From: a virus
Strand: one strand, 5' to 3'
IMG/VR virus record: IMGVR_UViG_3300027851_000054
Span: 1-43,125 of that record
DNA length: 43,125 nucleotides
Shown here: positions 20,739 through 43,125 of the stretch, piece after piece
Layout: each line of letters begins with the position of its first letter
Position numbering within the stretch: the first letter of the stretch is position 1
Position numbers and translations under genes: made by a program
The notes under the pieces: generated by a model
Seen by the model: the letters and a program-made list of their open reading frames with translations, nothing else
Databases searched by the model: none
What the model was told of the DNA's origin: nothing

Positions 20739-21490
20739 TGGCTTACACGGGCAAACCCGGTAACGTTACACCCGGAACGTATGGCAACGGAACCAACGTT
20801 GCCCAGGTCACCGTCAACGCTCAGGGGCAGGTGACAGCCGTTACCAACGTTAGTATCTCGACGGGCGGTGGGGGAACGGTCACCTCGGTTGGGCTCACCT
20901 CTACCGACCTGACCGTTAGCGGTTCTCCGGTTACCACGTCTGGCACGATCACAGCTAACCTGACAACGACGGGCGTAAGCGCGGGTACCTACGGGGACGC
21001 CAGCAACGTTGCGCAGATCACGGTTGACACGAAAGGCCGTGTAACCTCCGTAACGAATGTCCCCGTCTCCGGGGGCGGCGGCTCTGGTACGGTCACCTCG
21101 GTTGGGCTCACCTCTACCGACCTGACCGTCAGCGGCTCGCCGGTTACCACGTCTGGATCTATAACGGCTAACTTGACAACGACGGGCGTTAGCGCGGGCA
21201 CTTATGGGGATGCCAGTAACGTGGCCCAATTTACCGTCGATGCGAAGGGCCGTATCACGTCAGCCACGAACGTCCCCGTCTCCGGGGGCGGTGGTTCCGG
21301 CACGGTCACCTCGGTTGGCCTTAGCTCCACGGACCTGACCGTCAGCGGCTCGCCGGTCACCACGTCCGGCTCTATCACAGCCAACTTGACGACGACGGGC
21401 GTCAGCGCAGGCAGCTATGGCTCGTCTTCCCAGGTCGCCACGTTCACCGTTGACGCGAAGGGCCGGTTAACGGCGGCCAGCAACGTGACG
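19824..21490 (+). repeat. tail-fibre module repeats, 213-bp period in the second gene
   Basis: Six copies of a module start with (A)CGGTCACCTCGGTT-like DNA at about 19824, 20040, 20244, 20876, 21089 and 21302. The last three are exactly 213 bases apart and nearly identical in DNA. Spacing in the first gene is 216 and 204. The near-identity across genes makes this a likely site for recombination and copy-number change. Confidence 0.85.
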
Positions 21491-22000
21491 ATACCTGTAA
21501 AAGTCTGGTCCCCGTTAGTAGGGGGGCAGAACATAGATACCACGGCATACGCGGCGAAAGGGGTATTCTTTACCCCCACGCAAGATACCACCGTCTACGG
21601 ACTTGGCGGGTCGCTTAGCACATCTTCCGGACAGGTATATAAGTTGATGCTGGTCACTTTGGATGGGTCTAACGTTGTTCAGGCCGCGTACAGCACTGCG
21701 TCCGTAACGGCTACGACTACCTCAACGCGCGGGTTTGTGTACTCCAATTTCGGGTCCCCGGTAACGCTTACGGCGGGGGTGCCATGCGCGGTACTTCTCG
21801 TCAGGACGGACGGCACGGGTACCAGCAGCGTGAGCGTAGCGTACCAGAACGCACGCCCTATCCCGCAGGCGTTCTGCGTGGATATCGCGACGGCTAACAC
21901 TTTTGCTAGGCTTGCCAGCGTAAACCCCGGTATCGGGGACACCATTGGCACCGACGGTTCCGTTAGCGTCGCCTCGTTGGGATTTCTCGTTGGAGCGTGA
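20738..22000 (+). CDS. second tail fibre protein with nearly identical repeats
   Basis: This 420-residue fibre begins with a partial module (VTPGTYGNGTNVAQVTV) matching the middle of the preceding gene. It then has three modules starting at 20876, 21089 and 21302, exactly 213 bases (71 codons) apart. The C-terminal domain (residues about 250-420) differs from the preceding gene (TTAYAAKGVFFTPTQDTTVY) and is a likely receptor-binding or tip domain. Two adjacent fibre genes built from one module family suggest duplication with tip exchange. ATG 20738 overlaps the previous stop. Confidence 0.8.
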   Translation: MAYTGKPGNVTPGTYGNGTNVAQVTVNAQGQVTAVTNVSISTGGGGTVTSVGLTSTDLTVSGSPVTTSGTITANLTTTGVSAGTYGDASNVAQITVDTKGRVTSVTNVPVSGGGGSGTVTSVGLTSTDLTVSGSPVTTSGSITANLTTTGVSAGTYGDASNVAQFTVDAKGRITSATNVPVSGGGGSGTVTSVGLSSTDLTVSGSPVTTSGSITANLTTTGVSAGSYGSSSQVATFTVDAKGRLTAASNVTIPVKVWSPLVGGQNIDTTAYAAKGVFFTPTQDTTVYGLGGSLSTSSGQVYKLMLVTLDGSNVVQAAYSTASVTATTTSTRGFVYSNFGSPVTLTAGVPCAVLLVRTDGTGTSSVSVAYQNARPIPQAFCVDIATANTFARLASVNPGIGDTIGTDGSVSVASLGFLVGA

Positions 22001-22001
22001 T

Positions 22002-22370
22002 ATGCCAGAAGAACCTATTGTTGATTTCGGTCTTATCCGAATCTCGGAGCCCGGCAGGACCGATACACGCAATGTGTCGCTGCCTAATGGCGCTTACGTG
22101 ATCCCGGCGGACATCGTTTCCGCCCTCGGGGAGGGTAACACCCTAGCCGGCGCCGCCGTGCTGGATAGCCTATTTCCGACCAGAACGGGAGGCGGCGCCC
22201 CCGTCCCGATCATCATCGCGGGCGGAGAATACGTTGTTTCTCCGGGGGATTGTCGGCGTGTTGGCGGGGGAAATGTCAAACACGGGCACGCTACCCTAGA
22301 CAAGTTCGTCCTGGATGTCCGCAAGCAGACCATCAATGAACTGAAGAAGCTACCGGGACCGCAGAAATGA
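22002..22370 (+). CDS. conserved virion-region protein with an internal duplication
   Basis: This 122-residue protein carries two related segments, GAYVIPADIVSALGEGNT (about residues 30-47) and GEYVVSPGDCRRVGGGNV (about 76-93). Each is followed by a helix (LAGAAVLDSLF; KHGHATLDKFVLDVRKQ). The YVxPxxxxxxLGxG pattern is familiar from short modules in phage virion proteins. GGAGCG precedes ATG 22002. It overlaps the GNAT gene by ATGA. The molecular function is unknown. Confidence 0.65.
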   Translation: MPEEPIVDFGLIRISEPGRTDTRNVSLPNGAYVIPADIVSALGEGNTLAGAAVLDSLFPTRTGGGAPVPIIIAGGEYVVSPGDCRRVGGGNVKHGHATLDKFVLDVRKQTINELKKLPGPQK

Positions 22371-34591: not shown

Positions 34592-34594
34592 ACG

Positions 34595-34624
34595 AAAACC
34601 CCCGAGCATAATCTCGGGGGTTTT
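34595..34624. terminator. bidirectional intrinsic terminator at the convergence of the two arms
   Basis: A perfect 12-bp stem, AAAACCCCCGAG (34595-34606) with CTCGGGGGTTTT (34613-34624), has a 6-base loop. The A-run and T-run make it work for both strands. It ends the late transcript after the spanins and would also end leftward transcripts after they cross the repeat array. Confidence 0.9.
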
Positions 34625-35018
34625 CTCACTCTACCAAGTTGGTACGCTCCCATATATCGGCTCACTCTGCCAGGCTGGTACTCTTAAGGCTCCTGGTTCC
34701 CTCTATGCCAATGATACTCTTCTCTATTTTGGGTCACTAATCGGTCATGGCACGCTCATTGACCTAGGTTCACTTCCTTGATTTGGTACTCTCATCTATT
34801 GTGGTTCACTCGACCATCTTGGCACTCTCAAGGCAGCGGGTTCACTCGTCCGTCATGGCGCTCTCATTGTTCTAGGTTCACTCGACCGATATGGTACTCT
34901 AATAGCATTTGATTCACTTCCCCGCTTTGGTACTCTCATCTATTGGGGTTCACTCGGTCCTTTTGACAATCTTTCGGGCTGTGGTTCACTACCCTCTATT
35001 GGCACTCTCTTGGCACTC
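34623..35018. repeat. 22 x 18-bp phased repeat array (GSLxxx/GTLxxx in the + frame)
   Basis: The gene-free stretch 34592-35032 holds this array. It has 22 consecutive 18-bp units with no insertion or deletion, alternating GGTTCACTC-nine and GGTACTCTC-nine, so the higher-order period is 36. In the + frame the units read GSLxxx GTLxxx. Within the conserved nine bases, variation is concentrated at third codon positions (CTC/CTT/CTA, GGT/GGC/GGG). One in-frame TGA is in unit 9 (34779-34781). No ribosome site or start was found, and a terminator lies just upstream. Identical text recurs 144 bases apart (34783 and 34927). It is less GC-rich than its surroundings. Confidence 0.9.
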
Positions 35019-35032
35019 GGTTTAGCTCAAGT

Positions 35033-35830
35033 TCAGATCATATGGGCGTGGCCCAGAATCGCGATAGCGTAGGGCTTCGGTGCAGCGTTACCCGTGGCGA
35101 CCTCGTACCAGTAAGCGTGAAGGTGCGACAGGAAGATCTTCACCGCATAACGCCGGGCACGCGCGTGAATGTGCGCGGGCGGCAGCTTGCCAGAGGCATA
35201 CGCTTTGTAGGCTTCCGTGCTCTTGTCGTACTTCTTCCCCGCCAGAGCCTTCGCGGCCTGTTCAGCGAAGGCGCCGGCTTCATTCTTGGCGATTTCCAAG
35301 TCCTTCCGCTGGCGATACAGTTTCCCGTAAACGTCGTTCTCGTTATTCTGAACTTTGACGAAGCACTCGCCGGCCTTGAAACACAGGACCTTGAGCGAGG
35401 CGTTCCACGGGCGCTTTTCGCCTTTTTCCCAGGTTGACGTGGGGTCAAGGCCGGCGTATCGCCAGATATGCCCCGCCGTGGGGCACCTGGTAATATCGAT
35501 GTGGGCCAAGAGCCCCGCCGCGATAACGGGACCGATACCCGTGATTTCCTTGAGCCAACGCCCTACAGGATGCCCATCGGTGTACTTGTCCAACGCGCGC
35601 TTGATCTGGCTTTCCAAGACGGAACTTTGGTCTTCCAGCCACGAGAGAACCGCATTCGGTTCCGCCTCGCTTAACGCGCGGAGCCGGCCTTGGGCGCGCA
35701 GGCGATCCTCTTGCATCTGGTAATATGCATCAACCAGAAACCGGGCTTCGTGTCCGGACATACCCGAGGCCACGGCGGCCACATCGCGCTTAAGCCGGGC
35801 AACCGGCGTGAGGGTAATCGTATCAGTCAT
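35033..35830 (-). CDS. IS110-family transposase C-terminal-like HhH protein
   Basis: This 265-residue protein has a helix-hairpin-helix at about residues 93-110 (LKEITGIGPVIAAGLLAH). It is followed by HIWRYAGLDPTSTWEKGEKR, PWNASLKVLCFKAGECFVKV and KLPPAHIHARARRYAVKIFL. This matches the Transposase_20 (IS116/IS110/IS902) C-terminal domain. The N-terminal DEDD RuvC-like catalytic domain of IS110 enzymes is absent, replaced by 85 helical residues, and no element ends were seen. It is therefore probably a domesticated or phage-type DNA-binding protein rather than an active transposase. AGGAAG precedes the start, and a candidate promoter of its own lies upstream. Confidence 0.7.
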   Translation of the reverse strand: MTDTITLTPVARLKRDVAAVASGMSGHEARFLVDAYYQMQEDRLRAQGRLRALSEAEPNAVLSWLEDQSSVLESQIKRALDKYTDGHPVGRWLKEITGIGPVIAAGLLAHIDITRCPTAGHIWRYAGLDPTSTWEKGEKRPWNASLKVLCFKAGECFVKVQNNENDVYGKLYRQRKDLEIAKNEAGAFAEQAAKALAGKKYDKSTEAYKAYASGKLPPAHIHARARRYAVKIFLSHLHAYWYEVATGNAAPKPYAIAILGHAHMI

Positions 35831-35867
35831 TTGGCTTCCTGTTCTTCATGCGCTTGTCTATGGGGAG

Positions 35868-35896
35868 ACTATGACCAGTTTTTTATGCATTAGCAA
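35868..35896 (-). promoter_or_regulatory. candidate leftward promoter for the IS110-like gene
   Basis: On the - strand, TTGCTA (35896-35891), a 17-base spacer, and CATAGT (35873-35868) lie about 38 bases before the start codon in the 72-base gap after the polymerase gene. With it, the IS110-like gene and the repeat array would form a separate transcript. Confidence 0.4.
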
Positions 35897-35902
35897 GCGT
35901 TA

Positions 35903-38095
35903 TTATCTAAACCTTTCGCCGCTCCACCCGGCAACGGAAAGCGGAAGCCCTGCCGCCCAGGCCGGAACCTCACTCGCGATACGCAGGTATTCTTCAAGTG
36001 ACCCGAAGCCGATTTCCCGTTCGGAGACCAGTTCATCGTGTACGGACAAAACCACCCGATACCCGGCGGCCTCAAGACGCGCTTGCGCTTCAACCATCAG
36101 GTCACGGGCTAAACCCTGAGTTAGGTTTTCTACGAGCTTACCAGCATAGGTAAACTGTTCACCCCATTTCTTGGTGAAAGAGTCAATTGCCTTGAATACA
36201 AGCCCGGTTTTGGCGTCGCCTTCCGCCTCCCACCCCTGCTTCAACCAATACGCAAGGTCCGTTTCCTTGACCGGGCGCGCCATAGCGACGCCACCCTCCG
36301 TCTTGGAGATACGGACCACCTTGTGAAGACGTGGGTACGGGTACGCAAGCGCCCTGCCGCTCGGCAATCGGGCGAACAGGAAAGATCCGGCGGTTCGGAA
36401 CTTGAATGGCCCGGCGGTGTACGTGCTGCCCGGATTAGCCACGGCAGAGATAGCGGCGTCCTCCACGCCCCGCCAGAGCGCAACCACATTTGGGTGCGCC
36501 GCGCGCCACCGCAGCTTAATGGCCTCCGCCGCGAGCCAGCCCGGCTTGTCCATGCCTGACTTTTCCCCGCGCAAGCGGTAGCCCTCTTCTGCCTTCTGGA
36601 TTACGTCAGGCGGCATTTGCCCAAGCACCGTTTCGGCTTGTTCGCCAATCTTGAGACTATAGCCCAACGCCATTTTGTTGAACGCTGCGGGGCCACCGTG
36701 ATACCCAAGCGCCAATTCCGAAACCTTGCCAATCTGTCGCTGCGCTTTGCCGACATCCGCTGGCGCCTTCCCGAAGATGCTGCCGGCGGCCACTTTATAC
36801 AGATCCGGGCCTTCCCCCGCGTCATAGGCGCGGAAAGCATCGAGTTTCCAGTGCTCTCCGGCGGCCCATGCGAGCCCCCGGCCCTCGACGTTGGTAAAGT
36901 CGAAGTCGTATAGCTGGTTCCCCGGCGCGGCGGTCAGCAACCCCCGCAAGATGTCCGCTACCCCGAACATCGGCTGGCCGAACACCATGCGCACCATATC
37001 CGGGTTACCACCCATGACATAGCCGATGATCTCTAGCATTTGCTCATAGGCAAGGTCTTCGTCATCACCGTCAAGCAACACGGGGCGCGGGAGATTACCC
37101 GGCTGAATGCCTCTATGTGCTACGCGGCCCGTAGACGCGCCGTGGTATTGCATGGACCCCCGGACACGGCCATCCGCACTCCGCCGGGTCAGCATGGCGT
37201 CGATCTTGGCAACAGAGGACTTCCCGCCCTCTTGTCGAAGGGCCAACACTTGGCGCACGTCATCCGGCAAACCGGTCTGCCCCAGAAGATCGTCAATCTT
37301 GTCCTTGGCGAGGCTATCGACAGGGACTCCACGGGAAGCCAGCCATTCCTTGATCTGCCCGACATTCGTGATTGTCTGAACGGCGCCTTTGGTTACCTCG
37401 ATAATCTCGTCGTTGAATCCTTGCACCAAGGACGCGACAAACTTCTTGGCGGCGATGCAGGTCTCCCCGTCGATATAGATGCCTCTGTCATTGGCTCTTT
37501 CATTGAGGAACCAGACTTCCAGTTCAGCCGAGCTAAGGGGCAACAGGCACTTTAGCACCTTCCGGGTCAAGGCCACATCCTGGACGCAATAAGCGCGGGC
37601 TTGAGTGTACTTCGCCGCGTGCTCGGCTTCATCCCACCAGATAATTCCACCGTCCTTGACGGAGCGGGGCTTGGCCAATTGGAGGGCTACACGCTTACCC
37701 TTGTGGTCCTTGGTCTCGTTGAGGCCCAACGCCCCCGCCAAATCGTCCAGCGATGCGGGCAGGTTCATCGCCAGCCCCATGACCATGGTGCACCTGCACT
37801 GTTCGAGAGGTAGCGGGGGGAACCCGTATTTCTGAACGCATATCTGGTTCCAGATGATGCGGTCGAACGCGATGTTGTGCGCCGTCATCAGGCCGCCGGC
37901 CCTGACGTATTCCACCAGGTCTTCCGGCGGTTCCCCGAGGCTCGGGTACCACATCTGCACCGCATCATCGTCAAAACAATACCCTAGAGCCCATACATCC
38001 GCGTTAACCGAGGCGGAATACACGTAAACGTTGGACCCCTTTAGCTCAACGTCTGATCGGGTCTCGAAGTCAAAGACGCAGGTCTTCCAGTTCAT
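35903..38095 (-). CDS. family A DNA polymerase with 3'-5' exonuclease
   Basis: This 730-residue replicative polymerase has exonuclease motifs DFETRSD (Asp9, Glu11), TAHNIAFD (residues 71-78) and YCVQDVALT (near 170). The proofreading domain thus looks intact. Polymerase motif A is YDFDFTNVEGR (about 393-403), motif B region RQIGKVSELALGYHGG (about 455-470), and motif C VLSVHDELV (about 683-691, with catalytic Asp687). No 5'-3' exonuclease domain is present. It overlaps the methyltransferase gene by 26 bases on the same strand. The partner helicase and primase are not in the window. Confidence 0.93.
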   Translation of the reverse strand: MNWKTCVFDFETRSDVELKGSNVYVYSASVNADVWALGYCFDDDAVQMWYPSLGEPPEDLVEYVRAGGLMTAHNIAFDRIIWNQICVQKYGFPPLPLEQCRCTMVMGLAMNLPASLDDLAGALGLNETKDHKGKRVALQLAKPRSVKDGGIIWWDEAEHAAKYTQARAYCVQDVALTRKVLKCLLPLSSAELEVWFLNERANDRGIYIDGETCIAAKKFVASLVQGFNDEIIEVTKGAVQTITNVGQIKEWLASRGVPVDSLAKDKIDDLLGQTGLPDDVRQVLALRQEGGKSSVAKIDAMLTRRSADGRVRGSMQYHGASTGRVAHRGIQPGNLPRPVLLDGDDEDLAYEQMLEIIGYVMGGNPDMVRMVFGQPMFGVADILRGLLTAAPGNQLYDFDFTNVEGRGLAWAAGEHWKLDAFRAYDAGEGPDLYKVAAGSIFGKAPADVGKAQRQIGKVSELALGYHGGPAAFNKMALGYSLKIGEQAETVLGQMPPDVIQKAEEGYRLRGEKSGMDKPGWLAAEAIKLRWRAAHPNVVALWRGVEDAAISAVANPGSTYTAGPFKFRTAGSFLFARLPSGRALAYPYPRLHKVVRISKTEGGVAMARPVKETDLAYWLKQGWEAEGDAKTGLVFKAIDSFTKKWGEQFTYAGKLVENLTQGLARDLMVEAQARLEAAGYRVVLSVHDELVSEREIGFGSLEEYLRIASEVPAWAAGLPLSVAGWSGERFR

Positions 38096-42229: not shown

Positions 42230-42976
42230 TCACACCCCCAACCGGTCAAGTTCCGCCGAAAGCTCAGCGTAGAACTCGGCATAACGCCCCGGATCAAGTT
42301 GCGAAAGCCCGCGCGCGTTATACCCCTTCTGAAGCCGCGTCACGACCCAAGTCGTCGCGTAATCCTTGACGCTCTTTTCGGAAGCGCGGGCCGCCCGGTT
42401 AACCAGTCCGATCACATCCGCTTTCGTGACCTCGCGGTCTTCCAGGGAAACCCGGTCCTCGGGGGACACGCTGATATTCGGCTTCGGGTCTTCGTAGGTG
42501 TCGGTTTCCTCGGGAACATCATCAAAGAACGCGTCCGCCTTCGAGGGCGCGGTTACATGCGCCGCCAGGGGAGCGCCATCACGCGGAACGGCATAGCTAA
42601 GCGCGTCCGCCTCCGCCTCGCTTTTACCCTCGGCAAGAGCCGCCCGGTAAACGGCCATCTGTGCCTTGGTACGACGGCGAGGGGCGGGCGCCTCAGCCTT
42701 TTCCGGTTCGGCCTTTTCCGGTTCGGCCTTTTCCGGTTCGGCCTTTTCCGGTTCAGCCTTTTCCGGCTTCAACAGCGACGTCGCAGCGGCGACGAACTCT
42801 TCCGAAGGCTTCTCGGTTCCCTCCTTATACACGTTCCGGACAAGAGCCCCGCGCGGCGTGGCATCAGCGATGGCGTGATGCGCGGCCAAAGAGCAGGCAA
42901 GCGTTTTGAAAAAATCAGCGGCGGCCATAAGTTCTTCAACCGAAGAAGCCGCGTCATATTCAAAAGTAACCTTCAT
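42230..42976 (-). CDS. early protein with a KAEPE pentapeptide repeat linker
   Basis: This 248-residue protein has an N-terminal helical domain (residues 1-70), then five tandem KAEPE pentapeptides forming a charged linker (about residues 69-95). A basic segment follows (PRRRTKAQMAVYRAALAEGK), then an acidic part and a C-terminal helical domain (ADVIGLVNRAARASEKSVKD). The C-terminal part could bind DNA or nucleotides, but no family was recognised. It is upstream of the DUF2800/SSB pair. I chose ATG 42976 because AAGGAA lies upstream. Confidence 0.65.
   Translation of the reverse strand: MKVTFEYDAASSVEELMAAADFFKTLACSLAAHHAIADATPRGALVRNVYKEGTEKPSEEFVAAATSLLKPEKAEPEKAEPEKAEPEKAEPEKAEAPAPRRRTKAQMAVYRAALAEGKSEAEADALSYAVPRDGAPLAAHVTAPSKADAFFDDVPEETDTYEDPKPNISVSPEDRVSLEDREVTKADVIGLVNRAARASEKSVKDYATTWVVTRLQKGYNARGLSQLDPGRYAEFYAELSAELDRLGV
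42697..42771. repeat. five 15-bp tandem repeats
   Basis: Five consecutive 15-bp units (GCCTTTTCCGGTTCG on the + strand) encode the KAEPE repeats of the - strand gene. The units differ at only a few positions. Such a tract is prone to slippage in whole 5-residue steps. Confidence 0.95.
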
Positions 42977-42980
42977 TTCC

Positions 42981-43125
42981 TTACCCCTTCGTTTCGATTT
43001 CCACGACTTGATCCGCAACAACCGTCTGCATCTTCGCGGTCAAATGGTTGACCGGCTTGTCGAAGACCCCGGTGACTTCTTCCGTAATAGCGATGGCGAT
43101 AGCCTCATGCCATTCGGGTGTTCGG
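42981..43125 (-). CDS. partial early gene, start beyond the right edge
   Basis: The last 47 codons of a - strand gene are visible, ending TAA at 42981-42983, four bases before the next start. The text is helical (EWHEAIAIAITEEVTGVFDK) and ends VADQVVEIETKG. It is too short to identify. The frame stays open at the window edge. Confidence 0.6.
   Translation of the reverse strand, partial: RTPEWHEAIAIAITEEVTGVFDKPVNHLTAKMQTVVADQVVEIETKG

What the first reader, a model, noticed from the sequence alone, without database searches (positions are those of the whole stretch)
34595..35896. Stand-alone leftward unit: promoter, IS110-like HhH protein, then a 400-nt repeat 3' UTR and terminator
On the - strand a TTGCTA-17-CATAGT promoter precedes the IS110 C-terminal-like gene. 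The repeat array starts 14 bases after its stop and the next terminator is beyond the array. The array would thus be transcribed as the long 3' end of this mRNA. IS110-family transposases are known to work with structured non-coding RNA from the element ends. Here the transposase-like domain survives without the DEDD catalytic domain and next to a repeat-rich RNA. A protein-RNA or protein-DNA partnership is a speculative but specific hypothesis.
Basis: inference. Interest (0 to 1): 0.7.

Follow-up and report, generated by a model that had tools for sequence, protein, structure and literature searches.

The report
Phage TIGR-TasA guide-RNA array
This uncultured phage carries a small Nop-domain protein and an 11-unit guide-RNA array of the recently discovered TIGR-Tas kind, which probably steers the protein to matching DNA in rival mobile elements; in one relative the guides match a phage-satellite-like element in the same bacterium.

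Summary
The leftward gene (35830-35033) and the repeats behind it (35027-34625) form a TIGR-TasA system. The protein passes NCBI's TIGR-Tas model (222.6 bits, cut-off 100). Its predicted fold matches TIGR-TasR and TasH cryo-EM structures best, and it has no nuclease or DEDD domain. [quoted passage not shown] Truncated edge repeats stand at both ends, followed by a 13-bp terminator. Relatives were fetched by protein only; 100 of 113 loci carry such an array, usually beside the gene. The proposed promoter is weak.

No target of this array was found. In a relative (prophage of Acidobacteriaceae KBS 96), unit 2 matches 16/16 and unit 5 14/16, 0.9 kb apart, in the excisionase-like and replication genes of a 10.2-kb element integrated at a tRNA-Glu gene. 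The element encodes capsid genes and is satellite-like. Decoy pairings gave no hit. If confirmed, this is a natural TIGR target and points to silencing of rival elements. Six other hosts gave no convincing target.

The parts
35033..35830 (-). tasA: 265-aa Nop-domain Tas protein without nuclease domain
   Evidence: NCBIfam NF052498 TIGR_Tas_endo 222.6 bits (cut-off 100); phmmer to TasR 9mty E 3e-15 and TasH 21kl E 1.5e-8; AF2 model pLDDT 85, top Foldseek hits TasR/TasH
34625..35027 (-). TIGR dual-repeat array, 11 units of 36 nt (unit k starts at 35027-36(k-1)): edge repeat xAGTGAACC, spacer A, loop repeat xAGAGTRCCA, spacer B
   Evidence: dissection; column conservation; lag-36 identity 0.58 against at most 0.41 elsewhere
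35019..35027 (-). 5'-truncated edge repeat (AGCTAAACC) that opens the array
   Evidence: same arrangement in published arrays (PMC12045711) and in relatives
34625..34631 (-). 3'-truncated edge repeat (GAGTGAG) that closes the array
   Evidence: Salicola phage CGphi29 array ends the same way
34594..34625 (-). intrinsic terminator, 13-bp perfect stem, 6-nt loop, T tract; symmetric, so it can also end the rightward lysis operon
   Evidence: I4; fold -30.4 kcal/mol, z -6.2
   Evidence: letters present; not reported by the scan
35903..38095 (-). DNA polymerase gene directly upstream on the same strand (possible operon partner)

Best explanation
This is a TIGR-TasA locus of a tailed phage. The leftward transcript carries tasA followed by the array. 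By analogy with tested systems, host RNase plus TasA cut the array in each edge repeat into eleven 36-nt tigRNAs. Each tigRNA loads a TasA dimer, and spacers A and B pair with opposite strands of one short DNA site, which reads B + reverse-complement(A) on one strand. TasA has no nuclease, so it would hold and bend the site and block transcription, excision or replication there. The most likely targets are rival mobile elements in the same host, meaning satellites, prophages or co-infecting phages. Shown here: family membership, array anatomy, conservation of the pair, and in one relative two guides that match neighbouring early genes of a satellite-like element. Inferred: expression, processing, binding and silencing in the window's phage, and its targets.
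For: Protein: NF052498 well above cut-off; TasR/TasH structures are the top sequence and fold hits, ahead of IS621/ISCro4. Array: 11 x 36 nt with two alternating conserved repeats, truncated edges and a terminator, the same plan as in PMC12045711 and in the positive control Salicola phage CGphi29. Association: 100 of 113 relatives found by protein alone carry the array. Target logic: in KBS 96 (relative, 65% identical) a BLAST of the six B+rc(A) sites against the 6.7-Mb genome gives two hits only, unit 2 16/16 and unit 5 14/14 contiguous, 0.9 kb apart. Eleven decoy sites gave none. In the element, true pairs need 4,0,3,4,2,3 mismatches, while 102 decoys never get below 3. The hit genes are excisionase/regulator-like and replication-O-like, in an element with integrase, TerS, protease and capsid genes, bounded by a 26-bp repeat at a tRNA-Glu 3' end.
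Against: No target was found for the window's own array: none in its own genome at 3 or fewer mismatches, and no contig with two matching units in IMG/VR. The satellite match rests on one lysogen. Halomonas, Propionivibrio, Pyrinomonadaceae, WY4.bin103, Solibacteraceae and Bryobacterales hosts gave nothing convincing, and 36 relatives of the satellite's capsid locus gave no further target. The published TasR did not stop phage or conjugation in E. coli. No expression data.
Confidence: 0.75

Rival explanations
1. TIGR-TasA acts on the phage's own genome or the host chromosome, as an RNA-guided regulator or integration aid, rather than on rival elements.
For: TasA lacks a nuclease, so own-genome binding would be harmless; PMC12045711 suggests aid to integrases because the complex bends DNA.
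Against: No site with 3 or fewer mismatches in the window; KBS 96 guides hit no core-genome site in the BLAST search; the window's phage shows no recognised integrase. The Halomonas and Pyrinomonadaceae chromosomal hits are single and at chance level.
Confidence: 0.15
2. The array is not RNA but a protein-coding hexapeptide repeat (GTLxxxGSLxxx) on the + strand, or a DNA-binding-site array (iterons).
For: A + strand frame is open over much of the array because the period is a multiple of 3; a relative's array reads as a 155-aa SEPxxxREP ORF.
Against: The window frame has an in-frame TGA and stands just beyond a bidirectional terminator; arrays with 34, 35, 37 and 38-nt periods cannot keep a frame; variable blocks stay at 8-9 nt and the array goes with the tas gene.
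Confidence: 0.02
3. The gene is a decayed IS110 transposase that kept its C-terminal domain beside unrelated repeats, as the first reader half suggested.
For: Pfam Transposase_20 matches residues 92-131; PHROG 4285 is named transposase.
Against: IS110 equivalog model far below cut-off (32 against 140 bits) and TIGR-Tas model far above; the solo Nop form is conserved at 50-65% identity over about 265 aa in dozens of viral contigs with arrays.
Confidence: 0.02

Closest known systems
TIGR-TasA with dual-repeat array, e.g. FpTIGR of Flavonifractor plautii (Faure et al. 2025, PMC12045711)
   Same: Solo Nop-domain protein, adjacent array of alternating edge and loop repeats with roughly 9-nt spacers, truncated edge repeats at the ends, terminator, phage context.
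   Different: New locus in an uncultured phage; repeat sequences and spacers differ; the window's edge repeat lacks the final conserved A in about half of the units.
TIGR-TasH of Salicola phage CGphi29 (SpTIGR)
   Same: Edge repeat family (GAGCGAGCCA-like), about 8-nt spacers, 36-nt period, end fused to the terminator.
   Different: TasH has an N-terminal HNH nuclease; the window protein has none and is only about 24% identical.
IS110/IS621 bridge-RNA recombinase
   Same: Nop-like RNA-binding C-terminal half, weak sequence and fold match.
   Different: No DEDD domain; array of many guides instead of a single bridge RNA; NCBI IS110 model below cut-off.
Phage-borne CRISPR against satellites (ICP1 against PLE; recalled, not tested here)
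   Same: In the KBS 96 relative, phage guides match a satellite-like element of the same host.
   Different: Split 8+8-nt guides, no Cas genes, no nuclease, no adaptation genes.

Membership tests
TIGR-Tas (dual-repeat) | Nop-domain protein of the Tas family | tested here: met
   NF052498 222.6 bits, cut-off 100; TasR/TasH top hits in sequence and fold
TIGR-Tas (dual-repeat) | Adjacent array of two alternating 8-12-nt repeats with roughly 9-nt spacers | tested here: met
   11 units, repeats of 9-10 nt, spacers of 8-9 nt
TIGR-Tas (dual-repeat) | Array opens and closes with truncated edge repeats and ends in a rho-independent terminator | tested here: met
TIGR-Tas (dual-repeat) | Protein and array associated across relatives | tested here: met
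   100 of 113 loci, five more with 34-38-nt periods
TIGR-Tas subtype TasA | No HNH or RuvC nuclease domain | tested here: met
   265 aa, no nuclease family in Pfam, first helix of the model begins at residue 15
TIGR-Tas (dual-repeat) | Array transcribed and processed to 36-nt tigRNAs bound by Tas | not testable with these tools
   Needs small-RNA sequencing and pull-down
TIGR-Tas (dual-repeat) | Spacers A and B pair with opposite strands of one DNA site | tested here: inconclusive
   No target of the window's array; supported in the relative KBS 96
IS110 transposase | DEDD catalytic domain | tested here: not met
   Absent; NF033542 32.1 bits against cut-off 140
CRISPR array | One repeat of 25-36 nt with spacers of similar size | tested here: not met
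   Two alternating repeats of 9-10 nt, spacers of 8-9 nt

The most novel reading that the evidence does not exclude
Phages use nuclease-free TIGR-TasA as a programmable repressor of competing mobile elements, in particular phage satellites. It silences their excision and replication genes through pairs of 8-nt guides, and the KBS 96 match would be a first natural target of a TIGR array.
Probability: 0.5. Interest if true: 0.85.

Novelty: new member of a known kind. Interest (0 to 1): 0.55.

Why it matters
The locus itself adds one more member to a family described in 2025. The work around it bears on what that paper calls open: natural targets of TIGR arrays and the role of nuclease-free TasA (PMC12045711). 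The KBS 96 prophage and satellite-like element sit in one genome, so the hypothesis that TasA silences satellites can be tested directly. More than 570 relatives in IMG/VR and misleading 'transposase' labels (PHROG 4285, Transposase_20) suggest the system is widely misannotated in phages.

Tried and rejected
Coding reading of the array (+ strand GTLxxxGSL): rejected because of the in-frame TGA and arrays with periods that are not multiples of 3. 'Synonymous-codon' idea from units 5 and 8 (ATG ACG GAC / ATG ACC GAT): no 3-nt periodicity among 151 related unit pairs (33 of 139 distances, 25% expected), and the leading A belongs to the loop repeat; dropped. Self-targets: none. All-against-all of relatives' guides against about 1.5 Mb of relatives' DNA: true geometry not above the control geometry. 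Exact scans of IMG/VR for units 3, 5, 7, 8 of the window: 4, 2, 47 and 18 contigs, none with a second matching unit. Other hosts: Halomonas 15/16 in a ccmF-like host gene, Pyrinomonadaceae AT-rich host sites, Propionivibrio, WY4.bin103, Solibacteraceae, Bryobacterales: nothing convincing. Relatives of the satellite capsid locus: no further targets. Rfam: no match. PADLOC: no match. Polymerase relatives in IMG/VR: none found with the peptide patterns.

Full report
What was checked. The window is a whole IMG/VR virus record of 43,125 bases. It encodes a large terminase subunit and a head-to-tail connector (portal) related to Roseobacter, Caulobacter and Pelagibacter phages, a lysis cassette on the + strand, and a leftward gene block with a DNA polymerase. 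The host is not known; several of the closest named relatives infect Alphaproteobacteria. No integrase was recognised by eye in the ORF list and there is no tRNA.

The observation. On the - strand a 265-aa ORF (35830-35033) is followed by repeats and then a terminator. Read on the - strand, the repeats are 11 units of 36 nt. Each has edge repeat xAGTGAACC (9 nt), spacer A, loop repeat xAGAGTRCCA (10 nt) and spacer B (8 nt). Column counts of 11: edge 6,10,10,10,10,11,9,10,11; spacer A 4-7; loop 7,11,11,9,10,10,6,9,11, then the first A of what follows 11 of 11; the rest of spacer B 4-8. The array opens with a 5'-truncated edge (AGCTAAACC, 35027-35019) and closes with a 3'-truncated edge (GAGTGAG, 34631-34625) that runs into a 13-bp terminator stem (34625-34594; fold z -6.2). 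Lag-36 identity is 0.58 over 360 nt, against at most 0.41 at any lag 20-79 elsewhere in the window. The promoter letters exist but match only 8 of 12 consensus positions, and the scan lists no promoter. The gene starts 72 nt after the polymerase gene, so it may be read from an operon.

The protein. Pfam sees only the HhH part of Transposase_20 and PHROGs says 'transposase' (phrog_4285, E 1.9e-51). NCBIfam is precise: NF052498 TIGR_Tas_endo at 222.6 bits with cut-off 100, while the IS110 model reaches 32 of 140. phmmer against PDB sequences puts TasR (9mty, 3e-15) and TasH (21kl, 1.5e-8) before IS621. The AlphaFold2 model (pLDDT 85) matches TasR and TasH complexes first (E 1e-7 to 1e-6) and IS621/ISCro4 second (E 2e-3). 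There is no HNH, RuvC or DEDD domain: it is the solo-Nop form, TasA.

Relatives. Searches by protein only gave 14, then 80 viral loci (571 confirmed, 80 kept) and 16 bacterial or archaeal genome loci. Together with three phage records, this makes 113 loci, some of them overlapping pieces of the same contig. An automatic test found a 36-nt-period dual-repeat array in 100 of 113. Five more have arrays with periods of 34, 35, 37, 37 and 38 nt. Typical repeats are GAGCGAGCCA or GAACGAGTCA (edge) and GAGAGAACCA, GAGAGTACCA or GATAGTAACA (loop) with 8-nt spacers. Salicola phage CGphi29, a locus characterised in the TIGR-Tas paper, serves as positive control and shows the same plan and the same edge-terminator junction.

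Mechanism from the literature. Faure et al. (PMC12045711) showed for TasA, TasR and TasH that arrays become 36-nt tigRNAs cut within edge repeats, and for TasR and TasH that spacers A and B pair with opposite strands of one DNA site without a flanking motif. They state that natural targets and the role of TasA are open. From their 8-nt 3' overhangs and cut rule I derived that one target strand must read B + reverse-complement(A), with a gap of 0-2.

Search for targets. The window's array has no site with 3 or fewer mismatches in its own genome. All-against-all in relatives' DNA gave no excess over the wrong order. IMG/VR scans for four units gave no contig with a second matching unit. Two unit pairs in the window array (3/7 and 5/8) are alike in both spacers (13 of 17 positions; 0 of 5000 column shuffles give two such pairs). 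They are either duplicated units or guides to related sites; this is unresolved.

A target in a relative. Acidobacteriaceae bacterium KBS 96 carries a prophage with a TasA 65% identical to the window's and six units. BLAST of the six B+rc(A) 16-mers against its 6.7-Mb genome gave two hits only: unit 2, 16/16, at 6,329,962, and unit 5, 14/14 contiguous (14 of 16 in all), at 6,329,052. My analytic estimate for such a pair within 1 kb by chance is about 4e-6, before allowing for the handful of hosts tried. Eleven decoy sites (edge-centred mispairs and wrong order) gave no hit. Within the element, true pairs need 4, 0, 3, 4, 2 and 3 mismatches; 102 mispaired or wrong-geometry decoys never fall below 3. 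Unit 3's 3-mismatch site lies just outside the element, so the support comes from units 2 and 5.

What is targeted. The sites lie in an excisionase/regulator-like gene (HTH_17, phrog_66; codons 9-14) and in a replication-O-like gene (weak, phrog_345 E 0.004) of an element with a tyrosine integrase, HTH regulator, TerS, prohead protease and major capsid protein. A 26-bp direct repeat at 6,321,951 and 6,332,103 overlaps the 3' end of a tRNA-Glu gene, so the element is about 10.2 kb. I saw no large terminase, portal or tail gene within the repeats, though not every small ORF was scanned; the content resembles capsid-forming satellites (recalled). Its capsid protein (68% aa identity) and the C-terminal half of its Rep (59%) resemble those of the TIGR prophage, as expected for a parasite of that phage or a decayed relative of it. 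The prophage's own rep differs at the unit-5 site, so the guide separates rival from self.

Limits. This is one lysogen. Six other hosts gave nothing convincing, but most are fragmented MAGs. Nothing here shows expression, processing, binding or silencing. The literature library holds no report of a natural TIGR target that my searches could find, but many papers are not in it.

Verdict. The window feature is a TIGR-TasA locus, a new member of a known kind. The most interesting consequence, RNA-guided silencing of satellites or other rival elements by a nuclease-free phage protein, is suggested by the KBS 96 match and is directly testable.

Noticed in passing
L118 (Acidobacteriaceae KBS 96, C1:6321951-6332128): 10.2-kb integrated element at tRNA-Glu with int, HTH, excisionase-like, rep, TerS, prohead protease and capsid genes; two guides of the co-resident TIGR prophage match it.
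   Followed up: yes
window 34625-35027, units 3/7 and 5/8: Two pairs of units are alike in both spacers (13 of 17 positions), far beyond column shuffles; duplicated units or guides to related sites.
   Followed up: partly
L103 9728-10057; L112 709-1268: Other arrays also hold near-duplicate units (for example GAAATAAC/CACTGGTA and GAAGTAAC/CACTGGTA in L103).
   Followed up: no
L008, L027, L062, L094, L110: Tas relatives with array periods of 37, 37, 35, 38 and 34 nt instead of 36; spacer or repeat lengths must differ.
   Followed up: no
L002 6835-7302: A TIGR array reads as a 155-aa ORF (SEPxxxREP repeats); such arrays are likely annotated as repetitive hypothetical proteins.
   Followed up: no
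L018 (Mycobacterium phage Bircsak and 73 other mycobacteriophage records): Tas-like proteins annotated as transposase or DNA-binding protein; no 36-nt dual-repeat array was seen near the gene in Bircsak, perhaps the stem-loop type or none.
   Followed up: no
L016 (Microcystis phage Mvi-JY20, record 21463-22059): A Tas relative with a 36-nt array downstream in an isolated cyanophage, annotated hypothetical; a tractable lab system.
   Followed up: partly
L056 7799-8279, 11198-11416 and 17551-18691: Several TIGR arrays on both strands, up to about 8 kb from the tas gene.
   Followed up: no
window 20876-21420: Tandem 213-nt repeat within a tail-fibre-like gene.
   Followed up: no
window 42696-42766: 15-bp tandem repeat (4.7 copies, 98% match) coding AEPEK repeats in the 263-aa ORF 42230-43021 (- strand).
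   Followed up: no
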